Shown piece by piece: positions 2,431-21,424 of a DNA stretch of 33,199 bases (the stretch's first letter is position 1; each line of letters opens with the position of its first letter). The notes under the pieces are model-generated. The model saw nothing but the letters and a program-made list of their open reading frames with translations. It was not told the origin of the DNA and ran no database searches. A program made the translations under genes and the position numbers. Source of the stretch: Pleurocapsa sp. CCALA 161 (lineage in GTDB: Bacteria; Cyanobacteriota; Cyanobacteriia; Cyanobacteriales; Xenococcaceae); NCBI RefSeq assembly GCF_003003995.1, contig NZ_PVWF01000056.1, positions 1-33,199 of the forward strand, written 5' to 3'.

Positions 2431-4818
2431 ATGAGAGACATAGAACAAGCAATAATCAAGTCAATGCTGCTAAATTCAGGAGATATATTGCGATCGCGCT
2501 ATCGTATTTTACACCAGTTAGGTTTTGGCGGATTCAGCCGTACTTATTTGGCAGAAGATACCAATCGTTTTAACGAACTTTGTGTTCTCAAAGAATTTGC
2601 ACCTCAACTTAAAGGTACATTTGCCCTAGAAAAAGCACAGGAGTTGTTTGAGCGAGAAGCTGGTGTTTTATATCGCTTACGGCATCCTCAGATTCCTCAA
2701 TTTCGCCAGTTATTTCGCTATCGACAACATAACGATCAAGAAGAACATTTATTTTTGGTTCAAGATTATATTGAGGGAGTAACCTATCATACTTTACTAA
2801 ATCAACGTTTAGAAACAAATAATAGATTTAGCGAGGGGGAAATTAAAAAATTACTCACTCAAGTTCTGCCAATTTTAGAGTACATTCATTCGATGGGAGT
2901 GATTCACCGCGATATTTCTCCCGATAATCTGATTTTACGCAATCAAGATGAACTCCCAGTCTTGATTGACTTTGGCTGCATTAAAGAAGTCGAAATCAAA
3001 ACTCAACTTGAATTAAGCCAAGTAACTACAAATGCCCCAATACCTCTAGTTGCTACGGCACTGGGTAAGGCTGGTTATGCCCCTCCAGAACAGGTGGAAC
3101 GGGGAATTATTTACGCCCACAGCGATTTATATGCCTTAGCTGCTACGGCAGTAGTGTTATTAACGGGCAAAGAACCCCAGCAATTAATCAATCCTGATGG
3201 CTACCGTTGGAATTGGCAATCAGAAGTTACTCTTAGTCCCAAGCTTGAATGGATATTAAATACCATGCTGTCACCTCATCCTAGTGAGCGCTTTGGTAGT
3301 GCAGCCGAAGTCTGTAAAACTCTCCAAGACATCTCTATAATTACAACTTCTCAATTTAGCCAAACTACTACTGCTGAAAATTTCAATCAACCAAGTTTCA
3401 GGACAAAAACCTCAATTCTCGGTGACTTATTAGCTAAATCTCTATTTTTTATCCCTTTTTCCGCAGTTTTAATCTTAGGGGGATTTTTATGTCTAAAAGT
3501 GTCAGATTTAGATGTTGCCCCTGGGCTTTCTGACACCAATAACTCAGTTGGCAAAGATGCCCAACTGCAAGCTCGATTTAGTCAGGGAGAAAAGATCTTA
3601 ATTCCTCAAACTACTACGCCAGAAAAAGAAATGGCGATCGCTGCTTTTGCTCAAGGCAATTATGATCGTGCGACATCTTTGTTAACTGCATCCCTCAAAA
3701 ACGTGGCTAATGATCCAGAAGCTCTAATTTATCTGAACAATGCCCGTATCGGTAACGCCAAATCTTATAGCATCGCTGTTTCTATTCCGATTGGAAGTGA
3801 TGTCAATGCCGCCCAAGAAATTTTACGGGGTGTCGCCCAGGCACAAAATCGAATTAATCAAGCAGCAGGAATTAATCACATTCCTTTAAAGGTGCAAATT
3901 ATTAACGATGATAATGATCCAAAAATTGCCAAACAAGTAGCTAAAAAACTTACTCAAGAGCGAGAGATTCTAGGAGTAGTGGGACATTATGCCAGCGATG
4001 TAACTCTAGCTACCGCACCAATATATCAAGCTCATAAATTAGTTGCCATTTCCCCGATCAGTACTTCCATCAAACTATCTAACCTCAGCCCCTATATCCT
4101 TCGTACTGTACCCAGCGATTATCTGGCAGCTAGGGGGTTAGCGGGCTATATGCTCGAAAATCTTCAGCAAAAAAAGGTGGCGGTTTTTTATAACTCTCAA
4201 AGTAACTATAGTGAATCTCTCAAATCCGAGTTTACGGCTGCGGTTTATCTTGCTGGAGGAGAAGTAGTTAATACTTTTGATCTAGCCGATCCTAACTTTA
4301 ATGCCAGCGATCGCTATCAAGAAGCAGTGGCTGGTGGTGCCAAAGCAATTATGCTGGCTGCTAATACTAGTACCCTGGATAAAGCTCTCCAGGTGGTTCA
4401 GGTAAATCGTCAAAAGTTAAGTTTACTGGCTGGGGATGATGTCTATACTCCCAAAACTTTACAAATTGCTGGTGAAGCTGCCGAAGACATGGTGTTAGCC
4501 ATACCTTGGCATATTAAAAACAATCCCGATGCTGAGTTTAGTTTAATCGCCCAAAAACTTTGGGGAGGTAAGGTTAACTGGCGCAGTGCTACAGCTTATG
4601 ATGCCACCCAGGCTTTAATTACAGCGATCGCCCAAAGTCGAGATCCTACTCGAATTAGTATCCAACAAAATCTTTCTAATCCTAGTTTTTCTGCCCCAGG
4701 TGCGACTAGTCCCGTTGACTTTCTTCCTTCAGGCGATCGCGCTGGTAATATTCAGCTAGTTAAGATGCAGCCAGGAAATGACAAGTTTGGTTATGAATTT
4801 GTCCCGCTCAATCCGTAG
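2431..4818 (+). CDS. Ser/Thr protein kinase fused to a periplasmic-type ligand-binding domain
   Basis: A 795-residue two-part protein. The N-terminal half is a Hanks-type kinase: Gly-rich loop LGFGGFSRTYLA, ATP lysine in CVLKEF (Lys54), catalytic loop HRDISPDN (Asp161), DFG at Asp180, and APPEQ in the activation segment. A single membrane segment lies near residues 337-357. The C-terminal half (about 440-790) resembles type I periplasmic ligand-binding proteins of the branched-chain amino acid/ABC type (Peripla_BP_6), with the typical openings YSIAVSIPIG and VVGHYASDVTLATAPIY. The layout suggests a one-protein transmembrane receptor in which ligand binding outside controls kinase activity inside. 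ATG at 2431 is used; an in-frame ATG at 2464, just before the kinase domain, is an alternative. The stop is TAG. Confidence 0.88.
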   Translation: MRDIEQAIIKSMLLNSGDILRSRYRILHQLGFGGFSRTYLAEDTNRFNELCVLKEFAPQLKGTFALEKAQELFEREAGVLYRLRHPQIPQFRQLFRYRQHNDQEEHLFLVQDYIEGVTYHTLLNQRLETNNRFSEGEIKKLLTQVLPILEYIHSMGVIHRDISPDNLILRNQDELPVLIDFGCIKEVEIKTQLELSQVTTNAPIPLVATALGKAGYAPPEQVERGIIYAHSDLYALAATAVVLLTGKEPQQLINPDGYRWNWQSEVTLSPKLEWILNTMLSPHPSERFGSAAEVCKTLQDISIITTSQFSQTTTAENFNQPSFRTKTSILGDLLAKSLFFIPFSAVLILGGFLCLKVSDLDVAPGLSDTNNSVGKDAQLQARFSQGEKILIPQTTTPEKEMAIAAFAQGNYDRATSLLTASLKNVANDPEALIYLNNARIGNAKSYSIAVSIPIGSDVNAAQEILRGVAQAQNRINQAAGINHIPLKVQIINDDNDPKIAKQVAKKLTQEREILGVVGHYASDVTLATAPIYQAHKLVAISPISTSIKLSNLSPYILRTVPSDYLAARGLAGYMLENLQQKKVAVFYNSQSNYSESLKSEFTAAVYLAGGEVVNTFDLADPNFNASDRYQEAVAGGAKAIMLAANTSTLDKALQVVQVNRQKLSLLAGDDVYTPKTLQIAGEAAEDMVLAIPWHIKNNPDAEFSLIAQKLWGGKVNWRSATAYDATQALITAIAQSRDPTRISIQQNLSNPSFSAPGATSPVDFLPSGDRAGNIQLVKMQPGNDKFGYEFVPLNP

Positions 4819-4865: not shown

Positions 4866-7800
4866 ATGCAAAAGTATCTGAGATTAGCAAAATTAGTCAA
4901 GCTTATTCCCGAAGCGATCGCTTTAATAATTATCTTAAATACAGTTCAAACTAGAGAATTATTTTATATTTGCTCGTTATTAATAATTTATGCTTTAATC
5001 TTGAGATTAGTTTGGAACAGCGCAATTATAATTCACGGCTTGGGACATACCACCGCGATCGCTCTTGCCGACAGAGAATTATCAGCTTTTAATTTAACCA
5101 ACATTCTGGAACATCAAAATATTGAAACTGTTTTAAAATCCTTATTACCTTGCAATAAAATATTCATTCCTATTCTTTCTCCCTATCTCCTTATCTCCCC
5201 ATCTCCCTATCTAGCATCAGGAAAAACTACCTACACAAAAATTAAGGCATCAGGGGGAATATTCTTTAATCTCTCGCTGGCGATCTTCTTTTTCTGGTAT
5301 GCCGATAATCTTTTCAGTCAAACTTTGAGCGTTGCTAATCTACTAATTGCCGTATCTTCCTTATCCGATCTCCAAGCGTTCAGAACAGGAGTGGCAGATT
5401 GCTTTTACTGTGGCAACTTTGGCTTAATTGCTCTACGTCAACCCGATGATGGAAATCTGCTGTTACCTACCAGAATGCTCGACATAGCTCAACAAATGGC
5501 GCAAGAGACAGAAGTTAGAGGCGAACAGGCGGGTGGAGGATTAGTTATCGGCAGAAATGGCGATCGCAATGTGTTTGTGGGCAAAAAAATCGTTAAGCAA
5601 AAAAGAGGTAATTTAACTAAATCTCTCGAAGCAGCCTTTGCATTGATCCGCAATCAAGCGATCGCTGCTGGCGTAAAACCGCCAAAAGCTTCGGTAATGG
5701 GGATATGGCACTATCGCTATGCTACCAGTGGTGCTGTCCCCTCGGAACTAGAAACCCATTGGCACGAATGGATGGGGGAGAGAAACGAAAAGGTATGGCA
5801 GTTTAAGGAACAAAAATGGCGGTGTGCAACTAAAAATGTTCATCATCGCATTACTCATAATGGCGATTTTGCTAGTTGGCAAATATTTAATCAAAATGTC
5901 GATTATACTACCCTGGGCTTGTGGTTAGAGCGAGTTTTAGATACACCCAACGCCACTCAAGGAGATTCCCCTAAGATTGCAGGGATGATGGATTTATTAG
6001 TAACTCAGGGAATGTGGTATCCCTCGGTGCGACTGGCTTATCAACAAGCGATCGCCAGTTCTATTGAAGCTGCCTTTGACGGACAAAAACCGACGGCTGC
6101 TGCATCGAATACCGCCCCAAGGGAGCAAGATTTAAATATTTGGGCAGAAATATTTGAACAGATCTATACTTTAGAACTTTCTAACTTAGAACAAGATGCC
6201 TGGCAGATTAACCCTGACTCTTTAAAATACTCTAGCAACCTGCGCCAAAATTTGCTTCAAGCATTGGAAAACCATAGTTCAACGGTAAACTGGTCAAAAT
6301 TGCAGACGATATCCCTAATTCAATTTACCCTCCAAGCATTTTTTGATAACGATGTATATCGGGCAAACCAAATCTTTATTTCTCAAGCCCAAGGCAGTTT
6401 CGGTTTGGTTACGGCTTCTACTTTGGCAGAGTCAGAATTAGTTCTGTGTGCCAAGGGGCAACCACTTACCATCGGTTTTAATTGGTCGCAAGACTATATG
6501 GTGTATGCTTCTGAACCTGCTGCTGTGGATCGCGTTTTGCTGAATAAGCCCCAGTCTTTTCGTTTAGATTTGTCGCCCCAAAGCGGTGAAGTGGCAAAAG
6601 TCACGGCAAAAGATCTAATCGTTTACTCCTTAAGCCAACAGCAGGAATTAGGAAAGCAGGATCTAAAAGACAGATGGATCTCGATGGAGGATCATCCTTA
6701 TTTATCCCACATTAGACTTTCCACTCCAGAAAAACCCGATCCTATTGCCAATGACATAAATTCAATTCCCAGATTACTCCATGAAATTAAAACCGACTGG
6801 CAAAATCCCACTTCCCTTAACCGTCGCAGTGCCGATTATTTAATTTATCTTTTGACGGAAAAAGTGCAGCGATTTGAGAAAAAACAACGATTGATGTTTC
6901 AGGCTGGATTAATCAGTCAGATCAGAACCATGCCCACTACCGATCTGTTAATCACAGGCGAAGAAAATAGCCTCTGGTTAGGAGAAAAATTCGCTCAAGA
7001 TTTAACAGTAGTTTTTCCCTTTTTAAACATTGTCACTACCTCTGCCAATCAGCTTTTACAGCAGCTAGATCGGGGTTTTGGTCAACTCAACCTGGGTAGA
7101 GATTCCCTGGTACTAGCGATCACTCAATCGGGTCAAACCTTTTCTACAGTCAAGGTAATTAATATTTTTGATTATCTATGTAATCAGGGGATTATTGGCG
7201 AAATATTTATCCTGACGGGAGAATTAAGCAGTTTTATTAATTCTATTCAAGGTAAAGGTGGACTAACGACAATTACCAACTCTGCTTTTTTAAACAATGA
7301 CAACGATCGTCGCGATCGCGTTTTTATCAACGGTAGCGATCGCACAATAGCCGAACCCAGTACAGTAACGGTAGCTGCTGCGCTGCAAACCTTGACCGAG
7401 TTATTATTTTATCTCGCCAAGCAGATGAGGCATGATTTTCCCCTTTCTAATCCTTTGGGTATGACCTTAACTTCAGAAAGTTTAATGGTTTTAGCAATGA
7501 TGAAAGAAGATTTTTTAAATAAAAACGTTGTGCAGATTATCGGTACTACTGCCCAGGGTGAATCAATCAAATCAATTACCAAACAAAGATTATGCGATCG
7601 TGGTCGTTATTGGGCAAATCACGTTACTGAAACTCCTCTAGCCTGGGCAATTCACGCCCTATATATTTTAATTTCCGTCGGTTGGGCAATTCCTTTTGGT
7701 CATGCTCTACCTTTAGTCAAAACCCTGTCGGGATTACTATTTAACCTCGTTAACCTTTCTACAGATATAACCCAACTTCTAGCACCGATAATTGCTCTAG

Positions 7801-8534
7801 CTGATATCACTTTCTATATCTTTGGTGCTTGGTTATGGACATTAGGCATCCGCTATTATCAAGGCCGACAATTACTCGCCAGGATCGGTAAAAGAACTCT
7901 AGTTATTGGCGATGTAACTTGGGTAAACCAACTCTTACAGGCATACGTTAGTAAACTCTTTTCCCTTAGCTACGGCATTGCAACTATCGAAGTACATAGT
8001 GCTAATCCCCAGAACCATTTACTACACACTTTTGGACATCGAGTAGTGCGTGGTACGTTAATTTGGCTAGGTATCCCTGACGGCAGACGTGGTCAACAAC
8101 AGCAAGCAGTAGAAAATGCCGTAATTATGACAGGAAAACAAGCAAATGGCATAAAAAACTTGAATATTGGTGCAGAAATAGTTGCTGTAGGTCAAAATCC
8201 AGCGATCGCCCGTCAGGGTTTTAGTCAATCTCTAATTTTAAACAGTAACAACGATGGGATCTATTTCCGAAATCCTGCCGTCACAGAACAAAAAGAGCAG
8301 ATCGAACAGCTACGAGAATCTTGTTTTGGTGCATCAGAACGCTTGTTAGCTAGTTATGTCTTCTTCTGGGCGTTGGCGAAAAAGGTTGCTTCTTTTCCTC
8401 TACTCAAGTACGAATATTGGAAATCTCAAAGTCGCACCAAAGTTATGACCACTGCTGCCCCTGTAGAGGGATTGGATCTCAATCAACTCGATGAGCGATC
8501 GCGGCAAGAAGCTCAGATGAGAAAATGTGTGTAA
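4866..8534 (+). CDS. Membrane protein with class II glutamine amidotransferase and SIS (GlmS-like) domains
   Basis: A 1222-residue protein. The first ~175 residues are hydrophobic and resemble the start of an M50 site-2 protease, but HGLGH (57-61) replaces HExxH, so the metalloprotease would be inactive. A class II glutamine amidotransferase domain then starts internally at Cys182 (CGNFGLIAL). It keeps RGEQAGG, HYRYATSG (Arg284) and HNGD (Asn332, Gly333), which match the glutamine site of GlmS/PurF. Cys182 would need to become N-terminal by cleavage to be active. Further on are SIS-type sugar isomerase motifs (ITQSGQT, Ser755), two or more membrane segments near 925-995, and a second SIS-like region. 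GlmS makes glucosamine-6-phosphate; whether this paralogue does so is unknown. It lies 49 bases upstream of a glycosyltransferase and 47 after the kinase fusion. A low-complexity insert is listed separately. Confidence 0.72.
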   Translation: MQKYLRLAKLVKLIPEAIALIIILNTVQTRELFYICSLLIIYALILRLVWNSAIIIHGLGHTTAIALADRELSAFNLTNILEHQNIETVLKSLLPCNKIFIPILSPYLLISPSPYLASGKTTYTKIKASGGIFFNLSLAIFFFWYADNLFSQTLSVANLLIAVSSLSDLQAFRTGVADCFYCGNFGLIALRQPDDGNLLLPTRMLDIAQQMAQETEVRGEQAGGGLVIGRNGDRNVFVGKKIVKQKRGNLTKSLEAAFALIRNQAIAAGVKPPKASVMGIWHYRYATSGAVPSELETHWHEWMGERNEKVWQFKEQKWRCATKNVHHRITHNGDFASWQIFNQNVDYTTLGLWLERVLDTPNATQGDSPKIAGMMDLLVTQGMWYPSVRLAYQQAIASSIEAAFDGQKPTAAASNTAPREQDLNIWAEIFEQIYTLELSNLEQDAWQINPDSLKYSSNLRQNLLQALENHSSTVNWSKLQTISLIQFTLQAFFDNDVYRANQIFISQAQGSFGLVTASTLAESELVLCAKGQPLTIGFNWSQDYMVYASEPAAVDRVLLNKPQSFRLDLSPQSGEVAKVTAKDLIVYSLSQQQELGKQDLKDRWISMEDHPYLSHIRLSTPEKPDPIANDINSIPRLLHEIKTDWQNPTSLNRRSADYLIYLLTEKVQRFEKKQRLMFQAGLISQIRTMPTTDLLITGEENSLWLGEKFAQDLTVVFPFLNIVTTSANQLLQQLDRGFGQLNLGRDSLVLAITQSGQTFSTVKVINIFDYLCNQGIIGEIFILTGELSSFINSIQGKGGLTTITNSAFLNNDNDRRDRVFINGSDRTIAEPSTVTVAAALQTLTELLFYLAKQMRHDFPLSNPLGMTLTSESLMVLAMMKEDFLNKNVVQIIGTTAQGESIKSITKQRLCDRGRYWANHVTETPLAWAIHALYILISVGWAIPFGHALPLVKTLSGLLFNLVNLSTDITQLLAPIIALADITFYIFGAWLWTLGIRYYQGRQLLARIGKRTLVIGDVTWVNQLLQAYVSKLFSLSYGIATIEVHSANPQNHLLHTFGHRVVRGTLIWLGIPDGRRGQQQQAVENAVIMTGKQANGIKNLNIGAEIVAVGQNPAIARQGFSQSLILNSNNDGIYFRNPAVTEQKEQIEQLRESCFGASERLLASYVFFWALAKKVASFPLLKYEYWKSQSRTKVMTTAAPVEGLDLNQLDERSRQEAQMRKCV
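5178..5209 (+). repeat. Octanucleotide tandem repeat inside the SIS-domain gene
   Basis: Four imperfect copies of the 8-base unit tctcccta (variants tctcctta and tctcccca) lie head to tail and encode the low-complexity Pro/Ser/Tyr/Leu stretch LSPYLLISPSPYLAS. Such pyrimidine-rich repeats usually occur between cyanobacterial genes. Here it sits between the degenerate M50-like start and the amidotransferase domain and leaves the frame open. Confidence 0.7.
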
Positions 8535-11795: not shown

Positions 11796-11917
11796 GACAA
11801 AAGGTAAGATAAAAGAAACTAAATAGAGCGATAAAAATGGCAAAGGCTTATAGCTATGATTTACGACAAAAAGTAATTCAAGCGATCGCGGGTAGTAGTT
11901 TTTCTACTTTAATCTAA
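11776..11917 (+). mobile_element. IS630-family remnant with transposase start only
   Basis: Right after the J-domain break, at a TA-rich junction, a short leader leads to ATG 11837 and the peptide MAKAYSYDLRQKVIQAI, which is the usual start of IS630-type transposases. The similarity ends after about 18 residues, and a stop follows at 11915-11917. The rest of the element (HTH, DDE catalytic domain, right end) is missing. The stop of the HopA1-family gene on the opposite strand lies at 11914. The remnant therefore marks one boundary of the RiPP locus. Exact element ends cannot be fixed without a full-length copy for comparison. Confidence 0.65.
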
Positions 11918-13020
11918 AATCTAACAATACCGTGGTCATATATATCTGGCGAATCAGGATTAAGATATGGTTGCGCTAGCTTAATTCCTGCATCGGTAAA
12001 GCGATCGCGGATCTGCTGAAGTTTCATGGCTGGAGTTGGTTGATTAGCTTTCCAAGCGTCGAGCAAACCCTGTGCCACTAATTGAAGACAGTATTGACTA
12101 CGAGTTTTAACAGCATCATCATGAGAAAATGGTCTTTCGGCTAAACCCACTCCATCAGCGAGATACTTGGTAAATAAAGGAATTGTGGATTGAAAATAGG
12201 ATTGGGTCTGACTATAAATATTCGCGAGAATTGGCTTGACTTGAGGATAATCATCTTTACTAAAACTCAATACCGCAGCATCACACCATTGATAATTATC
12301 GGGATAATAAATCACTTTGAAATGAAAGGGAATGGTAATTTGATTGAGTTCAATGGTCAAGCGATCCATTAATGCCAATGCACCCTCAGAATTGAGATGA
12401 CAATAAACATCGACAATAGTGCAATTGCTTGGAAGATCATTAATTGAACCCTTGCTACCAACGGCAGTATAAAAACCTGGTTCGACCAATTGAGGGGGCA
12501 TTTTAACGGCAATAGTATCTCCTATCTGGGCATTTTGCTCTTGAGGAAGCACATGGCGATCGCTGCGAATATGCAGAGTTAGATCATTTTTGCGGACTTG
12601 TAAAAAGCCTTCAGCTGTTGTGCCAGTGATTAACCAGCCAGATTCAAAGTGACCATCGCAATGATTGTTAATCCGCAGTTGCTGATAAAATTCGCTCTTT
12701 GACCATTTAATCGCTTGATTTTCTATGCTAGCTGGTAGTTGAGGGATTGCCTTCAAGGACTCGCTTTGCGCACTGGCTTCGTCAATTGCAGCAGAGTGAT
12801 AATAAAGCTCGTGAATTAAAGTTTGTATCTTAACCTGTAAATATTGATCTTGAACTGATTCAGGCATTTGTCGGAAACGTTCTTGAATTTCTCTGGGTAA
12901 TTCAATCGGTTTGTGTTGAGGATGGGTAATGGTAAAATCAGCTTGAATTTCAATTGTGCTGGCAATATCGGCTAATGTATCTTCCAGTCTAGGATTTTTG
13001 CGGTCTAGTGATACAGTCAT
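11914..13020 (-). CDS. HopA1-family protein, probable class V lanthipeptide lyase (LxmY-like)
   Basis: A 368-residue soluble protein that I assign to the HopA1 effector family. Features are a helical N-terminal region, a middle beta-rich part (GWLITGTTAEGFLQV, then GDTIAVKMPP and EPGFYTAVGS), and a C-terminal part with FHFKVIYYPDNY, AVLSFSKDDY and a late helical block GVGLAERPF. In class V lanthipeptide pathways (lexapeptide, pristinin), a HopA1-type protein works with a phosphotransferase-like kinase and is thought to eliminate phosphate from phospho-Ser/Thr to give dehydroamino acids. Here it starts 20 bases after the stop of exactly such a kinase, and a Ser/Cys-rich precursor precedes both. 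No Shine-Dalgarno is visible. The family call rests on overall pattern and context, as I cannot align it here; catalytic residues are not assigned. Confidence 0.72.
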   Translation of the reverse strand: MTVSLDRKNPRLEDTLADIASTIEIQADFTITHPQHKPIELPREIQERFRQMPESVQDQYLQVKIQTLIHELYYHSAAIDEASAQSESLKAIPQLPASIENQAIKWSKSEFYQQLRINNHCDGHFESGWLITGTTAEGFLQVRKNDLTLHIRSDRHVLPQEQNAQIGDTIAVKMPPQLVEPGFYTAVGSKGSINDLPSNCTIVDVYCHLNSEGALALMDRLTIELNQITIPFHFKVIYYPDNYQWCDAAVLSFSKDDYPQVKPILANIYSQTQSYFQSTIPLFTKYLADGVGLAERPFSHDDAVKTRSQYCLQLVAQGLLDAWKANQPTPAMKLQQIRDRFTDAGIKLAQPYLNPDSPDIYDHGIVRF

Positions 13021-13040
13021 AATATTTTTCTGATTAAAGA

Positions 13041-14192
13041 TTAAACAGCTACGGCGTTATCAGGGGTCAATTCTGTCAGTTCTGAACCAAATACGCTAAC
13101 AATAGACTGTTCGGGATAGCACAGCAGACTTTTTGCTACTTGCATAGTACAGATCGCTCGATTATCGAAGGGTTGATGATACTCAGCATTTTGCTGTAGA
13201 TGTTTAATTAAACTAAGTCCTGCAAATTGTGTTGCTTGCTGAAGGTAGTTTGGTTTAATGATCAAAATTTGCGCAAACTGGCTTAGATAACTTTGAATAA
13301 ATGCTTTGAGGCTGGGTTGAATTTTTTCTAGAGGACAAGTAGCTAAACTTAACGCCACACTAAAATCTGTATCAGAATCTATATACAAACTATCTAACCA
13401 CAGTTCTAAATATTTGGCGATCGCCGTACCTAAATCTAAGGCAGGATCTCCCCATTCAAAAAACTCCCAGTCAATTAATTTTAATGATTTGCTGTTGCCT
13501 GATTGATTAATTAAATAGTTGCTAAATCTTAGATCATTGTGAGTTATGCAGATAGCCTGATAGTCTTGATGTAGATTGACTACTGCTTGATGCAGACTGG
13601 GAAACTTTTGGTAGAGTTTAAAAAATTCGATGCTATCGGAACAAATATTGCCAAAAATTCCTGGTCCAACTCTTGCTAACCCCCGCAAGAAGTTTGGGGT
13701 TTCTCCAGCACTACGTTTACTAGTATATTGAGCGAGAAATTTTTGATATTCAGATTTAGCGAAAGTGAGGCGATGTATTTGCCCTAGATTTGTCCCCAAG
13801 GCTTCAGCAATGGCTAAAGGATAATCATGATTATCTTGATAGAAATCAGACAAGGGAAGATATTCGGGAAAATAATTCAATACTAGAATTTTATTTTCGT
13901 CATCAAAATGTACAGGTTGGGAAACTGATTTTTGAATTGGATTTAGTTGGGCAAAATTAGCCCACAACAAATTAATCAGCCATTCATACTTTAAGCAACC
14001 AGTCGCTTCTCCTTTTCCATTAAAGCGCTCCTGCTTAACAATATAATTAGTCCCATCGGTCAATCTGACAATTAAATTAAAGTTTTTATATTCTTCAGGG
14101 ACAACTGGTTGTGCTAGTTGACTATCTAAAGGACAAACTTGCTGTTGTTTCAAGTAGGGAATTACGTTCTCGGAACTCAGAATTAATGACAC
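13041..14192 (-). CDS. Phosphotransferase-fold kinase, probable class V lanthipeptide kinase (LxmK-like)
   Basis: A 383-residue protein of the aminoglycoside/choline phosphotransferase superfamily. An N-lobe lysine is in NYIVKQE (Lys53). The catalytic Brenner loop reads THNDLRFSN (Asp220, Asn225), and the metal-binding motif is LIDWEFFEWGDPALDLG (Asp241). All key residues are intact, so it should be active. Choline, aminoglycoside or homoserine kinases are the generic alternatives. Its place between a Gly-Gly precursor and a HopA1 gene argues for a peptide Ser/Thr kinase, as in class V lanthipeptide synthetases. The start is GTG at 14190-14192 with no clear ribosome binding site. The gap of 154 bases from the precursor holds only a weak hairpin, so readthrough into a precursor-kinase-HopA1 operon is plausible. 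Confidence 0.8.
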   Translation of the reverse strand: MSLILSSENVIPYLKQQQVCPLDSQLAQPVVPEEYKNFNLIVRLTDGTNYIVKQERFNGKGEATGCLKYEWLINLLWANFAQLNPIQKSVSQPVHFDDENKILVLNYFPEYLPLSDFYQDNHDYPLAIAEALGTNLGQIHRLTFAKSEYQKFLAQYTSKRSAGETPNFLRGLARVGPGIFGNICSDSIEFFKLYQKFPSLHQAVVNLHQDYQAICITHNDLRFSNYLINQSGNSKSLKLIDWEFFEWGDPALDLGTAIAKYLELWLDSLYIDSDTDFSVALSLATCPLEKIQPSLKAFIQSYLSQFAQILIIKPNYLQQATQFAGLSLIKHLQQNAEYHQPFDNRAICTMQVAKSLLCYPEQSIVSVFGSELTELTPDNAVAV

Positions 14193-14276
14193 AAGCTTAA
14201 AAATTTTTACTTAAAGTTTTAAATTTATATTTATTTAGGTTCAATTACCCGCAACTTAAACTTAGATGTAACTACA

Positions 14277-14309
14277 AGAAGAGCTAATGCTCATCACAAT
14301 AACTCTTCT
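14277..14309 (-). terminator. Hairpin between precursor and kinase genes (possible partial terminator or processing site)
   Basis: A 7-bp stem, agaagag (14277-14283) with ctcttct (14303-14309), surrounds a smaller gagc-taat-gctc hairpin (14281-14292) that competes with it. No T-run follows on the minus strand, so full termination is unlikely. Such a structure could stabilise the precursor message relative to the enzyme genes. Confidence 0.25.
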
Positions 14310-14346
14310 GTAACCGTGAAAATCTTAAGCTAGAGCAAAATTCGCT

Positions 14347-14583
14347 TTAGCAGCCATAGCCACAGCCACAGCCGTAATGACCGCTACCGCTACCTTTACT
14401 TTTGCTTTTGCTTTTGCTTTTGCTTTTGCCACTGCCACTGCCACTATGACCGTGACCGTAGCCGCCACCACCAGAGACTTTTAGTTCATCTTCGGAAAGC
14501 GAGCGAATGTTACCCATGAAGCTTTCGGAGTCTGCAAATAAGTTAGCGCCTACAGGAGAAAGTTCGTTAATTTTGATTCCCAT
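14347..14583 (-). CDS. RiPP precursor peptide with Gly-Gly leader and Ser/Lys/Gly/Cys core
   Basis: A 78-residue precursor. Residues 1-39 form the leader: acidic and helical, containing SPVGANLFADSESF and ending in LSEDELKVSGG, the classic double-glycine motif for C39 peptidases. The core (from 40) has Gly-Tyr-Gly-His repeats, three Ser-Gly pairs, five alternating Lys-Ser units, two more Gly-Ser pairs, and ends HYGCGCGYGC. It holds ten Ser (47-67), six Lys, three His, no Thr, and three Cys (72, 74, 78) only at the C-terminus. That is a fitting substrate for Ser phosphorylation/elimination and Cys addition by the neighbouring kinase and HopA1 protein, and for export by the C39 transporter across the 0.5-kb divergent region. 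Metal binding through His/Cys is an alternative role. It is followed by the kinase gene on the same strand. Confidence 0.85.
   Translation of the reverse strand: MGIKINELSPVGANLFADSESFMGNIRSLSEDELKVSGGGGYGHGHSGSGSGKSKSKSKSKSKGSGSGHYGCGCGYGC
14395..14430 (-). repeat. Hexanucleotide repeat coding Lys-Ser units in the precursor core
   Basis: On the plus strand the unit tttgct appears four times perfectly (14401-14424), flanked by variants tttact and tttgcc. On the coding strand this reads as alternating AGC/AGT and AAA. Being a multiple of three, the repeat can expand or contract by slippage while keeping the frame, changing the number of modifiable Ser residues. Confidence 0.85.
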
Positions 14584-15083
14584 TTTGTTTACCTTTGATA
14601 ATTTTGCTGTGAGTTAATACCAAAGAGCATATACTACGTGCATCTCTTTAGATATTGAATGAATTAAGGGGAAATAAATCCTTGTGTATGTTTATAACGC
14701 AAAATTTCCGCCAAAATTCATCTAAATGGCAGAAAAAAAGACATAAGCTACAGTAGCTTAAAAATTATGTCTTAACTTATTATTTTGACTAGGTTAATTA
14801 GAATGTATTAAACTTAACTACAGCTTAACTATTCTTTAATAACCACAGTCAACGAAATTCAGGTATGATTCATTCAAGTGAAAATACCCAAAAAAGTACT
14901 TTATTTATTTAGACTCAATTGAGATAATCATGCAAATAAAGCAGTTAAATTAGTATATAACACTTATCTTTTTGACTTAATTGTCGTCTTTTTGTCTTTT
15001 TTCTAATTAATAAAACTTAGTAGTGTAGTTAATCGAATGCTATAAGTAAAACCAAGAATCTGAATCATTTTTAATGGAGAATA
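14584..15083. promoter_or_regulatory. Divergent regulatory region between precursor and exporter operon
   Basis: This 500-base AT-rich stretch separates the minus-strand precursor gene from the plus-strand HTH/exporter operon and must hold promoters for both. Its clearest element is the minus-strand terminator at 14733-14773. No frame with a ribosome binding site was found. The longest minus-strand start-to-stop frame (about 21 codons near 15060) overlaps the plus-strand leader and has no support. Short T-rich direct repeats (tttttgact/tttttgtct-like) occur at 14970-15002. A tggag Shine-Dalgarno precedes the HTH start. Confidence 0.45.
14733..14773 (-). terminator. Intrinsic terminator/attenuator upstream of the precursor gene
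   Basis: Read on the minus strand, aagacataa (complement of 14765-14773) pairs with ttatgtctt (14738-14746), and the inside can form taagcta-ctg-tagctta (14744-14760). A run of seven T follows at once, from the A-run 14733-14739. This is a strong rho-independent terminator by form, placed about 150 bases before the precursor ATG in the same direction, with no complete gene upstream for it to serve. It may be an attenuator in a long leader or the end of a small RNA. Confidence 0.6.
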
Positions 15084-15656
15084 ATGACTGTCAACTATCA
15101 AGCTCAAGACTTGAGCAGTATCTTGGCTGAGATACTGTCCGACAAGTCGGTCAAAAACTTAGATCCCAGACATCGTCGTCGCTTAGAAATAATTCTGCGG
15201 AGTCACTTAGGTCAATCCCAGGTGGAGATTTGTTCCGCTTTGGGCTGTTCTAAAGATATGGCTCGTTATTGGATGGCGATCGCCAAAAAACCAGCAAGTG
15301 ATTCTTGGCAAGATACCTGTGTCGGAAGACCCAAAAGGGTTAGCGATGAATATCTTCAGCGTCTGCAAGAATTAGTAACCAGTAGTCCTCAAGACCACGG
15401 GTATGCGTTTAAACGTTGGACAGCCAGATGTCTAAGCCAACATTTAAGCACCGAACTAGGTATAGAAATTAGCGATCGCCATGTGAATCGTTTGCTCAAG
15501 CAGATGGGTCTATCAACCAGAAATTCCCAGGATTCTGCTAACGCAATTCAATCTTCTAGTAACTCAAAATCAGGCAGAATTACCATTCAAGACCTTAACC
15601 CATCTGCTTCTTCTCAATTAAACGATTCACTATGGTGGTTTCAAAACCAGATTTAA
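15084..15656 (+). CDS. HTH protein derived from an IS630-type transposase DNA-binding region
   Basis: A 190-residue protein carrying two DNA-binding units and no catalytic domain. Residues about 29-70 form a homeodomain-like HTH (RRLEIILRSHLGQSQVEICS, then LGCSKDMARYWMAIA). Residues about 85-152 match the winged HTH of IS630 transposases (GYAFKRWTARCLSQHL, then ISDRHVNRLLKQMGLSTR). The DDE domain is absent, replaced by a Ser/Asn-rich tail. It starts at ATG 15084 after a tggag ribosome binding site, and its last 25 bases overlap the exporter gene, so translation is probably coupled. A role as regulator of the precursor/exporter region is likely from position but unproven. Confidence 0.8.
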   Translation: MTVNYQAQDLSSILAEILSDKSVKNLDPRHRRRLEIILRSHLGQSQVEICSALGCSKDMARYWMAIAKKPASDSWQDTCVGRPKRVSDEYLQRLQELVTSSPQDHGYAFKRWTARCLSQHLSTELGIEISDRHVNRLLKQMGLSTRNSQDSANAIQSSSNSKSGRITIQDLNPSASSQLNDSLWWFQNQI

Positions 15657-18686: not shown

Positions 18687-20675
18687 ATGAAAAAAATTGA
18701 AAACTATACTGTCATTCCTGAATCTAATCAGCATCAAGAAATAAAGATTTTGCTGGTAGACGATCAGAGTTTTGCCCGACGTTTTATTAGTAAACAAATC
18801 GAAACTGTTAATCATCTCAGAATTATCGGCATGGCGGGGAATGGAGAAGAGGCGATCGCTATGGTCGAATCCCTAGAGCCAGATGTGGTATTAATCGATT
18901 TAGAAATGCCCGAAATGGATGGAGTGACCGCCATCGAAATTATTGTCGAGCGATTCCCTAGCTGTAAGGTTATGGTGCTAAGTTCTCACGAAGATGAACA
19001 ATATCTGCAAAATGCCTTATTTGCTGGGGCGACAGGCTATTTACTCAAAGGAAGTTCAGCACAAGAGTTAACTAACGCTATCACCTCAATTCGCCAAGGT
19101 TACACTCAATTAAGTCCAGGGCTGTTGAAAAAAGTTCTTACCCCCAAAATCGAGATCCTAGACAATGAAACACAATTTCCCCCAGTAGCAACCGCTGATC
19201 ATAACTGGTCAGAATCTACTAGAGAAGGAGTCGAAAACTTACCCAGAGTTTCTTTGCGAGCCTTACTATATGTATTGATTGGCTTAACAATGGTAATGAT
19301 TCCCTGGATCACCTTTAGCAAAGTGGATGAAATTGGTGCAGCTAAAGGTAAATTAGAGCCTCAAGGTAAAGTCGTCAGGCTGGATGCCCCCGTCAGCGGT
19401 GCTGTAATGTCGATTGAAGTTCGAGAGGGAGACAAAGTTACCCCAGGACAAAAGCTGGTGGAATTAGACACGGAACTTGTCAACGCAGAGCTTAATCAGC
19501 AACTACAAAAATTACAGGGGCAGCAAAATCAACTAAACCAATTACAATTACTCAAAAATCAACAGTCAATCTCGCTGCAAACTCAAAAGCAGCAAAATCA
19601 GGCACAGCAGTTTGAAAAAGAAGCTTTAATCGCCCAAGCAAAAGAAAATCTGTCTTCTCTCAAAGCCAACTATGAAAATCAACTAGCCGAAAAACAAGCC
19701 CAAATCCAACAGGCTGAAGGTGCAATCAAAGCTAGTCAGTCTGCCCATCAGATGGCAAAAATTAGATGGCACAAAGCGATCGCCAAAGTACCCCGTTATC
19801 AATATGCTTTTAAAGAGGGTGGCATATCTCAAGATAGGTTGGCAGAAGCCGAACAAACCGCTGAAGAAACTAAGGAAAGTATTAATCAAACTCAAGCTGA
19901 AATTGCTCAGGCTCAGTCCCGCTATCAAGAGCAAGAGCAGGGCTTTGACAAGTTACGTCAGCAAACAGCAGGCGAAATTGAACAAGCTGCTTTACGTTAT
20001 CAAGAACAGCAACGAGGGCTTAAATCTTTAGTGGAGGCAAATAATTTAGCGGGTCTGAAAATAGAAGAAGAATTAAAAAATACTGGGTCGCAAGTTGTCA
20101 ACCTCCAAGGAGAAATCGCGCAAACGGAAACTTTAATTAAAGGTTTAAATTATCAATTGCAGCAACGCAAGATTTATGCTCCTGTCAAGGGAACAATCTT
20201 TGAATTACCGATCGCCAAACCAGGGGCAGTGGTGCAGCCAGGGCAAACGATCGCCCAAATTGCCCCCGAAAATGTGCCTTTAGTTTTACGCGCCAGAATG
20301 AGTAGTAATCAAAGTGGCTTTCTGGAAGTGGGTTTACCTGTCAAACTCAAGTTTGATGCCTATCCATTTCAAGACTATGGTATTGTGCCTGGTCGTTTAA
20401 CCTGGATTTCCCCTGATTCGCGCGTTAGATCAAGTTTATCAAGTTCGTCAAGTTCATCATCATCGACAAATGAGTCCCCTGGATCAAATCTGCCAGCAGA
20501 ATTCTATGAGATTGAAGTTGAATTAGCACAAAACTATATTCAATATGGCGATCGCCGAGTTATGTTGACCCCAGGACAAACTGCTACTGCGGAAATTGTC
20601 ATTCGTCAGCGCCGTTTAGCGGATATTTTTCTCGCTCCATTTAAAAGTTTAAAAAAGGGTGGTATTCAGCTTTAA
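18687..20675 (+). CDS. HlyD-family membrane fusion protein with N-terminal response-regulator receiver domain
   Basis: A 662-residue fusion. Residues about 20-140 form a complete NarL-type receiver: acidic pair Asp25-Asp26 in LLVDDQSFARRF, phosphoacceptor Asp71 in VLIDLEMPEMDG, Ser in VMVLSSHED, and Lys121 in GYLLKGSS. Instead of an output HTH there is a linker, one membrane helix (LLYVLIGLTMVMIPW, about 190-208), and a full HlyD adaptor: lipoyl half (KVVRLDAPVSGAV), a long Gln/Glu-rich coiled coil (about 265-480), the second lipoyl half (IYAPVKGTIFELP) and a C-terminal beta domain with a poly-Ser insert near 578-590. The adaptor would link the ABC exporter to an outer-membrane channel, while the receiver stays in the cytoplasm. 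It follows the exporter by 52 bases. Phosphorylation could gate export; the partner kinase is not known. Confidence 0.9.
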   Translation: MKKIENYTVIPESNQHQEIKILLVDDQSFARRFISKQIETVNHLRIIGMAGNGEEAIAMVESLEPDVVLIDLEMPEMDGVTAIEIIVERFPSCKVMVLSSHEDEQYLQNALFAGATGYLLKGSSAQELTNAITSIRQGYTQLSPGLLKKVLTPKIEILDNETQFPPVATADHNWSESTREGVENLPRVSLRALLYVLIGLTMVMIPWITFSKVDEIGAAKGKLEPQGKVVRLDAPVSGAVMSIEVREGDKVTPGQKLVELDTELVNAELNQQLQKLQGQQNQLNQLQLLKNQQSISLQTQKQQNQAQQFEKEALIAQAKENLSSLKANYENQLAEKQAQIQQAEGAIKASQSAHQMAKIRWHKAIAKVPRYQYAFKEGGISQDRLAEAEQTAEETKESINQTQAEIAQAQSRYQEQEQGFDKLRQQTAGEIEQAALRYQEQQRGLKSLVEANNLAGLKIEEELKNTGSQVVNLQGEIAQTETLIKGLNYQLQQRKIYAPVKGTIFELPIAKPGAVVQPGQTIAQIAPENVPLVLRARMSSNQSGFLEVGLPVKLKFDAYPFQDYGIVPGRLTWISPDSRVRSSLSSSSSSSSSTNESPGSNLPAEFYEIEVELAQNYIQYGDRRVMLTPGQTATAEIVIRQRRLADIFLAPFKSLKKGGIQL

Positions 20676-20704: not shown

Positions 20705-21424
20705 ATGTCAGAAAAAATTGCTATTAGCCCAGAAGAAATTATTCAACAAATAAAATTTTCTCGTCTAATGCCTGAGGTTACCAAAGAAATTGCTAGTCGT
20801 AAGATTATTAGCGATACTGCCACAGCCGAAAATGTTGTCCTCAGCGAATTGGAAATACAGCAAGCAGCAGATAGTTTTCGCTTGCAAAATAATCTTTTTA
20901 GTACTCAAGCAACTTTAAATTGGCTAGAAAAATATAGTTTATCCATTGAGGAGTTTGAACAACTAATCTATTACAATTGCCTCTGTTTAAAATTAGCTCA
21001 ACATTTATATGGCGATCGCGTTGAAGCATATTTTTACGAACATCAGCTTGATTATACTGAAGCCATAATTCACGAGATAGTTTTGGCAGATTTTGATTTA
21101 GGAATGGAATTATTTTATGGAATTCAAGAACAAGAATTTAGCTTCTGGGATGTTGCCCATCAATATATTCAAGAACCAGAATTACGTTACAGCGGCGGCT
21201 ATCGAGGCTGCTTAAAGCGGAGTCAACTCAAGCCAGAAATTTCCATGGCGGTATTTGCGGCTAATCCCCCACAAGTCCTTAAGCCTATTGTTGTCAACAA
21301 GCAAACATACTTGATTTTTGTTTCGCAAATTACTCAGCCCAAGTTAGATAGTAAAATGCGCTATCTCATTGCTAGCGATCTGTTTAACCAATGGCTACAA
21401 GAACAAGTTAAACAATTACTATAA
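20705..21424 (+). CDS. Parvulin-type peptidyl-prolyl isomerase (SurA/PpiC-like), no signal peptide
   Basis: A 239-residue protein with a helical SurA-like N-terminal part (about 1-110) and a parvulin-like C-terminal part: FWDVAHQYIQEPELRYSGG, then SMAVFAANPPQVLKPI and YLIFVSQI, matching the family's order of A-x-x-Y/S, GG, A-F, P-I and the final strand. There is no signal peptide or lipobox, so it should act in the cytoplasm, unlike SurA or PrsA. The gene starts 29 bases after the HlyD adaptor. Such parvulins recur beside HlyD/C39 exporters in cyanobacteria, as far as I recall, and may keep the substrate unfolded or help modification. Active-site residues are only partly conserved, so a pure chaperone role is possible. 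Confidence 0.75.
   Translation: MSEKIAISPEEIIQQIKFSRLMPEVTKEIASRKIISDTATAENVVLSELEIQQAADSFRLQNNLFSTQATLNWLEKYSLSIEEFEQLIYYNCLCLKLAQHLYGDRVEAYFYEHQLDYTEAIIHEIVLADFDLGMELFYGIQEQEFSFWDVAHQYIQEPELRYSGGYRGCLKRSQLKPEISMAVFAANPPQVLKPIVVNKQTYLIFVSQITQPKLDSKMRYLIASDLFNQWLQEQVKQLL

What the first reader, a model, noticed from the sequence alone, without database searches (positions are those of the whole stretch)
11914..14583. Class V lanthipeptide-like synthetase (kinase + HopA1) next to a Ser/Cys precursor in a cyanobacterium
Seen: a Gly-Gly precursor with ten Ser and three Cys in its core, an intact phosphotransferase-fold kinase, and a protein I assign to the HopA1 family, in this order on one strand. 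Known: class V lanthipeptides (lexapeptide, cacaoidin, pristinin) use a phosphotransferase-like kinase and a HopA1-type protein for Ser/Thr dehydration. Inferred: this trio makes a lanthipeptide-like product. It differs from the actinobacterial clusters in leader type, core composition, C39 export and lack of a recognisable LxmX cyclase gene, so it could be a separate branch.
Basis: partly seen in the sequence, partly recalled or inferred. Interest (0 to 1): 0.93.

Follow-up and report, generated by a model that had tools for sequence, protein, structure and literature searches.

The report
Kinase with disarmed lyase, Lys-Ser peptide
A cyanobacterial gene trio that looks like a lanthipeptide maker has kept its kinase but lost key catalytic residues of its lyase, and its relatives act on lysine-repeat peptides that sometimes hold no serine, threonine or cysteine, so it more likely makes exported phosphorylated peptides than lanthipeptides.

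Summary
The trio is real: a Gly-Gly precursor with a (KS)n core, an APH-fold kinase and a HopA1-family protein (PF17914 E 6.7e-41; predicted fold nearest LxmY), divergent from a C39 exporter operon. The reading as a lanthipeptide synthetase is not supported. At the positions of CaoY residues R187, K219, R229 and Y236 the window HopA1 has D, K, W and S. R187A in CaoY nearly abolishes elimination and leaves phosphopeptide (PMC9486802). The kinase keeps its catalytic residues. Of 132 HopA1 proteins at 134 loci, 73 keep R/K/R/Y. Lys-Ser or Lys-Gly repeat peptides occur at 10 loci, all with R187 lost. Two (KG)n cores hold no Ser, Thr or Cys, so no lanthionine can form in them. All four (KG)n loci, and no other of the 134, have a 2OG-Fe(II) oxygenase gene after the HopA1 gene. 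A same-genus genome shares 94% identical exporter DNA up to about the precursor's start, then has the (KG)n plus oxygenase cassette. Best reading: a RiPP kinase with a disarmed HopA1 partner that leaves phosphate on Ser or, inferred, on hydroxylysine. No biochemistry was done, and only about two independent origins support the correlation.

The parts
14467..14583 (-). leader of the precursor (39 aa, ends in GG); the stretch ES-x-MG-x-[IL]R-x-L[ST]E[DE]EL is shared with L055, L065, L066 and L067
   Evidence: 54-68% identity over 33-39 aa to leaders of L055, L104, L066, L099, L065, L067, L096 (first), L077, L076, L103
14347..14466 (-). core: GGYGHGHSGSGSG(KS)5KGSGSGHYGCGCGYGC, net charge +6, ten Ser, three Cys, no Thr; then stop
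   Evidence: nearly the same core in L103
13041..14192 (-). LanK-like APH-fold kinase, residues K53, E70, H218, D220, N225, D241 intact
11914..13020 (-). LanY-like HopA1-family protein, lyase residues lost
   Evidence: PF17914 E 6.7e-41; LxmY fold; residues D204, K235, W245, S252 where CaoY has R187, K219, R229, Y236
12409..12411 (-). codon of D204, position of CaoY R187
12265..12288 (-). codons W245 to S252, positions of CaoY R229 and Y236
15084..15656 (+). 190-aa helix-turn-helix protein (HTH_32; like the N-terminal part of IS630 transposases), first gene of the divergent operon
   Evidence: relatives in front of the exporter in L055, L065, L066, L067, L076, L099, L103, L104
15632..18634 (+). 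peptidase C39 ABC exporter with a cNMP-domain-like N-terminal part, expected to cut after GG
   Evidence: PF03412 E 7.6e-42, PF00664, PF00005; cNMP_binding only E 0.0011, below cut-off
18687..20675 (+). response regulator fused to HlyD adaptor
   Evidence: PF00072 E 1.3e-25 and PF13437 E 2.6e-19
20705..21424 (+). PpiC-like TIGR04500-related peptide maturation protein
   Evidence: TIGR04500 E 1.1e-18, below its cut-off

Best explanation
A RiPP system derived from the class V kinase/lyase dehydratase in which the lyase has been disarmed. The kinase phosphorylates hydroxyl side chains of a polycationic repeat core while bound to the HopA1 partner, which no longer eliminates phosphate and serves as scaffold and peptide holder. 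In the window the acceptors would be the Ser of (KS)n, giving an alternating Lys/phosphoSer polyampholyte. The C39 exporter then cuts at GG and secretes it. Shown by sequence: gene set, loss of lyase residues, intact kinase residues, link to Lys repeats, linked exporter. Inferred: phosphorylation itself, loss of lyase activity, the scaffold role, cleavage, secretion and the nature of the product.
For: R187, R229 and Y236 positions are D, W, S in the window; CaoY K219A gives only and R187A almost only phosphopeptide, and R229Q is inefficient (PMC9486802 section 6). Of 14 loci with a core of at least 15% K+R and a lost R187 or Lys/Arg repeats (listed in the full report), 14 lack R187 and 13 lack Y236; the kinase residues are all present in 13 of 14, and in L104 they are spread over two frames. 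K[SG]-type repeats: 10 of 134 loci, all R187-lost, none among the 73 with R/K/R/Y. Cores of net charge +6 or more: 12 of 19 at R187-lost loci, 2 of 161 at R/K/R/Y loci. L060 shows the same pairing inside the canonical clade (sister to L085, 96/87). Relatives' altered HopA1 genes are under purifying selection: dN/dS 0.38 (L065/L066) and 0.24 (L101/L102), against 0.12-0.20 for three canonical pairs. LxmK alone is soluble only as an MBP fusion and LxmKY is a stable heterodimer (PMC12141560 section 10), a reason to keep a dead partner. No LanC-like gene in the genome.
Against: No product or activity is known. The window protein keeps the K219 base, as do 9 of the 14 loci, itself included, and L060 keeps Y236. 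Of 16 loci with R187 lost and a kinase not dead (leaving out the five of family f6 and L069, whose contig starts too close), the two Moorena loci L101 and L102 have cores below 15% K+R, though one L102 core has net +7. Six of 56 canonical loci with a GG peptide have one core of at least 15% K+R; one of these is L085, the sister of L060. L104's core has net charge -1. The 15% limit was set after seeing the data and just admits the window. Only two independent pairs on starred branches, sign test p 0.5. The window's own HopA1 has no close relative to test for selection. Two (KG)n cores have no hydroxyl side chain but Tyr, which needs the extra hydroxylation step.
Confidence: 0.5

Rival explanations
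1. Class V lanthipeptide-like synthetase after all: the altered HopA1 still eliminates phosphate with substitute residues, the ten Ser become Dha and the three Cys close thioether rings without a dedicated cyclase.
For: Homology and fold to LxmKY; K219 kept in the window; Ser and Cys both in the core; CaoY R229Q kept some activity.
Against: R187 reversed in charge, Y236 lost, the ESFGxNRCQ motif of the canonical proteins lost; sister loci without Ser/Thr/Cys (L067, L099); no LanC-like gene.
Confidence: 0.15
2. The pair acts on another group: Tyr or Lys directly, with Ser and Gly only as spacers between lysines.
For: Cores of L067 and L099 have no Ser, Thr or Cys but end in YRYYYH and RYYYKW; all ten K[SG]-repeat loci have a precursor with at least one Tyr in the core.
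Against: The cationic cores of L076, L068 and L078 have no Tyr; the oxygenase, present only with (KG)n cores that have no or one Ser, suggests that missing hydroxyls are being supplied.
Confidence: 0.17
3. The product is an unmodified cationic bacteriocin-like peptide; kinase and HopA1 are leftovers or act in regulation or self-protection.
For: A cationic Gly-rich peptide with GG leader and C39 exporter is a usual bacteriocin layout (recalled); no product known.
Against: Kinase residues present in 13 of 14 such loci, the fourteenth split over two frames; both genes under purifying selection in relatives; kinase, HopA1 and precursor differ together between same-genus genomes.
Confidence: 0.13
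4. The HopA1 gene is simply decaying in this genome.
For: Loss of several motifs; broken HopA1 genes or fragments exist in relatives (L072 in two frames; fragments in L073 and L066).
Against: Full-length open frame, fold predicted with confidence, loss of the same positions in many species, dN/dS below 0.4 in two pairs of relatives.
Confidence: 0.05

Closest known systems
LxmKY, lexapeptide dehydratase (PDB 9DK1-9DK3), and CaoKY of cacaoidin: class V lanthipeptide LanK/LanY
   Same: APH-fold kinase plus HopA1-family protein encoded side by side; same folds; kinase residues intact
   Different: lyase positions R187, R229, Y236 changed; GG leader and C39 exporter; Lys-Ser repeat core; no LanC-like gene in the genome. 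LxmX was not searched with a profile
Cyanobacterial LanKY with type-B precursors (PMC9486802; its Figure S6 was not seen), probably the canonical R/K/R/Y loci here, such as L033 in the same genome
   Same: same phylum, related leader, kinase and HopA1; several canonical loci have the same kind of exporter, HlyD and PpiC genes
   Different: canonical HopA1 keeps all four residues; cores contain Ser or Thr in 161 of 161, are rarely cationic, and only 8 of 161 hold Cys
TvaC/TvaD of thioviridamide and ThoD of thioholgamide (from PMC9486802 passages)
   Same: kinase plus HopA1-like protein on a RiPP precursor
   Different: those pairs dehydrate Ser/Thr; products are thioamitides
Diatom silaffins (recalled, no call)
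   Same: analogy only: Lys-rich, Ser-rich, phosphorylated, hydroxylysine in some
   Different: eukaryotic, unrelated genes; resemblance of composition is not homology

Membership tests
Class V lanthipeptide (LanK/LanY) | APH-fold kinase with intact catalytic residues | tested here: met
Class V lanthipeptide (LanK/LanY) | HopA1-family protein next to the kinase | tested here: met
   PF17914 E 6.7e-41, LxmY fold
Class V lanthipeptide (LanK/LanY) | phosphoSer/Thr lyase residues (CaoY R187, K219, R229, Y236) | tested here: not met
   D, K, W, S in the window; LxmY (9dk1_B) has R, K, R, Y at the aligned places
Class V lanthipeptide (LanK/LanY) | NCBIfam LxmK equivalog cut-off | tested here: not met
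   74.6 bits against 315
Class V lanthipeptide (LanK/LanY) | core with Ser/Thr and Cys to form lanthionine | tested here: met
   ten Ser, three Cys in the window; not met in sister cores L067 and L099
Class V lanthipeptide (LanK/LanY) | lanthionine in the product | not testable with these tools
   needs mass spectrometry
Class V lanthipeptide (LanK/LanY) | LxmX-like kinase-fold cyclase | not tested
   no LxmX profile was run; among 19 window frames scanned with Pfam the only other APH-like match is a Ser/Thr protein kinase at 2431-4818; LanC-like gene absent from the genome
GG-leader peptides exported by C39 ABC transporters | GG motif leader and linked peptidase-C39 exporter | tested here: met
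   cleavage itself not testable here

The most novel reading that the evidence does not exclude
A new class of RiPP: secreted phosphorylated polycationic repeat peptides made by a kinase and a disarmed HopA1 lyase, with two interchangeable cassettes. In one, Ser of (KS)n is the phosphate acceptor. In the other, (KG)n cores have no or one Ser, and a dedicated 2OG-Fe(II) oxygenase first makes hydroxylysine, which the APH-fold kinase then phosphorylates. Cassettes replace each other behind the same exporter and promoter region. The products would be bacterial counterparts of silaffin-like polyampholytes.
Probability: 0.3. Interest if true: 0.92.

Novelty: new variant of a known kind. Interest (0 to 1): 0.76.

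Why it matters
Kinase plus HopA1 has been proposed as a handle for finding class V lanthipeptides (PMC9486802). This branch suggests that the pair can lose elimination and go on with peptides in which lanthionine is impossible, so the rule over-calls lanthipeptides, at least in cyanobacteria. If the product is a Lys/phosphoSer or phospho-hydroxylysine polymer, it would be a RiPP type with phosphate as the final modification and a pseudoenzyme as a working partner, directly testable by co-expression of three small genes.

Tried and rejected
Viral contigs: no relative of the kinase among 141 stretches. Plasmids: 13 records, none above 60% identity; the Tolypothrix one is annotated with HopA1, aldo/keto reductase, PpiC, HlyD and C39 genes, but its HopA1 residues were not scored. 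An aldo/keto reductase as a sign of dehydration: beside 12 of 73 canonical, 0 of 24 R187-lost and 0 of 35 K219-changed loci, suggestive only. Terminator scan of 11800-15150 found none; promoter-like matches are at chance level. PDB sequence search with the kinase profile A1 found nothing at E 0.001, although the single sequence hit 9dk1_A at 2.8e-06. The oxygenase was sought in 386 genomes: 30 have a relative at E 1e-20; the three read in context (61%, 52% and 37% identity) had no HopA1 or kinase gene within the 13-17 kb taken, so the family is not specific to this system. No paper on phosphorylated RiPPs from a dead LanY was found in 10 searches of the held library; that library lacks most subscription journals. 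Silaffins and human hydroxylysine kinase are recalled; a search for the latter found no paper.

Rows dropped: L095, L097, L098, L100 are the same loci as L067, L077, L065, L076, and L191 as L102 (shared 500-base stretches); they were left out of counts. L075 was left out of one alignment because it had been cropped wrongly; searches use its domain. For one search, one core per locus was chosen and typed by hand, with the residue signatures; L067 and L099 came out one repeat short, and for L085 I chose a core of 14% K+R although another there has 20%, so that pair is weaker than the script shows. D241 of L104 is a misalignment; the true residue lies in its second frame. Cores of L060, L068 and L078 were found by a looser scan, so the single regular-expression count (11 of 15 R187-lost against 6 of 56 canonical) is the fair comparison; the Fisher test mixed the two ways, ignores kinship and is not relied on.
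Full report
What is there. On the minus strand lie a 78-aa precursor (14347-14583), a 383-aa kinase (13041-14192, GTG start) and a 368-aa HopA1-family protein (11914-13020). Pfam gives HopA1 PF17914 E 6.7e-41 over the whole profile and APH PF01636 E 1.6e-11. NCBIfam's LxmK model matches the kinase at 7e-21 but far below its cut-off. By sequence the nearest solved chains are the lyase (E 2.7e-4) and kinase (E 2.8e-6) of 9DK1, which is LxmKY of lexapeptide (PMC12141560, section 10 read). An AlphaFold model of the HopA1 protein (pLDDT 88) matches LxmY best (9dk2_B, E 5.3e-15), then two P. syringae effector structures (4rsx, 4rsw) and, weakly (E about 0.05 and above), class III synthetases. The kinase model (pLDDT 74) matches LxmK best. 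On the other strand runs an operon of a small helix-turn-helix protein, a C39 peptidase exporter, a response regulator fused to HlyD, and a PpiC-like protein.

The lyase looks disarmed. In CaoY, K219A gives only phosphorylated peptide, R187A almost only, and R229Q dehydrates inefficiently; Y236 corresponds to a catalytic Tyr of SpvC (PMC9486802 section 6 read). The window protein has D, K, W and S at the positions of R187, K219, R229 and Y236. The equivalence with CaoY numbering is by motif, spacing and the match to LxmY, which has R, K, R, Y at the aligned places; CaoY itself was not aligned. The kinase keeps the six APH residues checked. The same genome has a second, canonical cluster (L033) with R/K/R/Y and four Cys-free precursors.

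Relatives. PF17914 occurs in 56 of 386 sampled genomes of the phylum, and a protein search found relatives of the window HopA1 in 14 of 27 genomes of its family. I took 40 neighbourhoods, ten named loci from the GTDB scan (four of them duplicates of loci already held) and 87 further ones. In the census of 134 loci, 132 HopA1 proteins were long enough to score: R/K/R/Y 73; R187 kept but K219 changed 35; R187 lost 24. All six kinase residues were read as present in 126 of 132 kinases scored (one of these, L104, is in two frames).

Substrates follow the lyase state. Lyase-lost loci carry lysine-repeat cores: (KS)n in the window, L060 and L103 (Oculatellaceae Prado106, nearly the window's core); KKS or KSS mixtures in L055, L077 and L096; (KG)n in L065, L066, L067 (Xenococcus sp. 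PCC 7305) and L099 (Acaryochloris); other Lys- or Arg-rich cores in L076, L068 and L078; and in L104 a Ser-rich core with 17% K+R but net charge -1. These are the 14 loci counted in this report. Repeats of K[SG] at least four long, or of K/KK with S/SS, were found at 10 of 134 loci, all R187-lost, none at the 73 canonical loci. By one regular expression, 11 of 15 R187-lost loci with a GG peptide had a core of at least 15% K+R, against 6 of 56 canonical loci; the four exceptions are L070 and L074, whose kinases have lost catalytic residues too, and the Moorena loci L101 and L102. By net charge of +6 or more the counts are 12 of 19 cores against 2 of 161. The kinase tree puts the window with L055 and the (KG)n loci (100/97), with L076, L077 and L096 around them (100/95); L060 lies apart in the canonical clade beside L085 (96/87), so the pairing of a lost R187 with a Lys-repeat core probably arose twice. 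Formal independent pairs on starred branches are only two, p 0.5.

Why lanthionine is excluded in part of the branch. The cores of L067 and L099 hold no Ser, Thr or Cys, the only two of 180 cores without Ser/Thr, yet the kinase and HopA1 genes are kept. L065 and L066 have one Ser each. All four (KG)n loci, and none of the other 130, encode a 2OG-Fe(II) oxygenase (PF13759, E 1.5e-21 to 7.6e-23; histidines expected for iron present by eye) directly after the HopA1 gene. In G399, G402 and G409 (L066, L065, L067) it is the only PF13759 match above cut-off in the genome; the window's genome has none, nor has G396 (L055); G392 (L060) has one elsewhere. Oxygenase dN/dS between L065 and L066 is 0.055. 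I infer that it supplies the hydroxyl that Ser supplies in (KS)n cores, most simply as hydroxylysine; that an APH-family kinase phosphorylates free hydroxylysine is recalled. Tyr in these cores is an alternative acceptor.

Cassette exchange. Window and L065 (same genus) share 93.6% identical DNA over 7 kb of exporter operon and intergenic region. Identity is 84-98% per 100-base block from 14658 outwards to 15757, 78% in the block over the precursor's start codon, and 41-64% across the precursor; kinase and HopA1 proteins are 42% and 35% identical between the two. So precursor, kinase, HopA1 and oxygenase differ as a unit behind a shared exporter and promoter region; that they were exchanged by recombination is inferred. 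L066 has a 38-codon stretch 53% identical to the window's HopA1 just beyond its oxygenase gene (E 6e-7), a possible scar of such a replacement.

Selection. Altered HopA1 genes of relatives are not decaying: dN/dS is 0.38 (L065/L066) and 0.24 (L101/L102), against 0.12, 0.14 and 0.20 in three canonical pairs. The window's own gene has no near relative for this test. In lexapeptide the kinase alone is soluble only as an MBP fusion and forms a stable heterodimer with LxmY, which makes a scaffold role plausible.

Mechanism proposed. Shown by sequence: gene set, changed lyase residues, intact kinase residues, linkage to Lys repeats, oxygenase only with (KG)n cores, cassettes that differ as a unit. 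Inferred: the pair phosphorylates the core and stops there; the exporter cuts at GG and secretes a polyampholyte. What the product does is unknown; a part in surface coats or mineral contact is a guess that rests on no call.

Against this reading. K219 is kept at 9 of the 14 loci, the window among them, and L060 keeps Y236. The Moorena loci have mostly non-cationic cores, and one canonical neighbour of L060 (L085) has a mildly cationic core. A HopA1 protein with a substitute active site is not excluded.

Relation to what is known. Kloosterman et al. (PMC7794033, passages seen) reported distant homologues of the pair in cyanobacteria, and the CaoKY paper (passages and sections 6 and 7 read) named type-B precursors from cyanobacteria. 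In the parts I saw neither mentions lost lyase residues, lysine repeats or the oxygenase. Of PMC10880069 I saw passages; other papers only as search listings. Supplementary figures were not seen.

Noticed in passing
L081-L083, L086, L088, L094 and 34 more loci (list): A second altered HopA1 group of 40 proteins, all from family f6 genomes: 35 keep R187 but have Q, E or H at K219, 5 more have lost R187 too. Kinase residues are present in 37 of 40 and no GG peptide was found nearby (0 of 35 and none of the 5). Function open.
   Followed up: partly
L033 (second cluster of the same genome, contig C32): Canonical kinase/HopA1 cluster with four Cys-free precursors, aldo/keto reductase and PpiC genes; suggests dehydrated, perhaps reduced, Cys-free peptides.
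   Followed up: partly
census of 161 cores at R/K/R/Y loci: Only 8 of 161 cores found at canonical cyanobacterial loci hold Cys, so most of these cores cannot form lanthionine by themselves.
   Followed up: partly
L070 389-2737 and L074 9083-11365: Kinase/HopA1 pairs in which both partners have lost catalytic residues; in L074 the pair lies beside a HopA1 with R/K/R/Y.
   Followed up: no
L069 257-2659, L078 9751-12210, L075 7413-9902: Single-chain fusions: kinase with HopA1 (L069, L078), and HopA1 with a LanC-like region judged by eye only (L075).
   Followed up: no
window 18687-20675: Response regulator domain fused to a HlyD adaptor, with similar long proteins beside relatives' exporters; an export adaptor with a receiver domain.
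   Followed up: no
window 15084-15656: Helix-turn-helix protein like the N-terminal part of IS630 transposases, without the catalytic part, kept in front of the exporter in relatives; perhaps a domesticated regulator.
   Followed up: no
window 4866-8534: 1222-aa open frame with no Pfam match at E 0.01.
   Followed up: no
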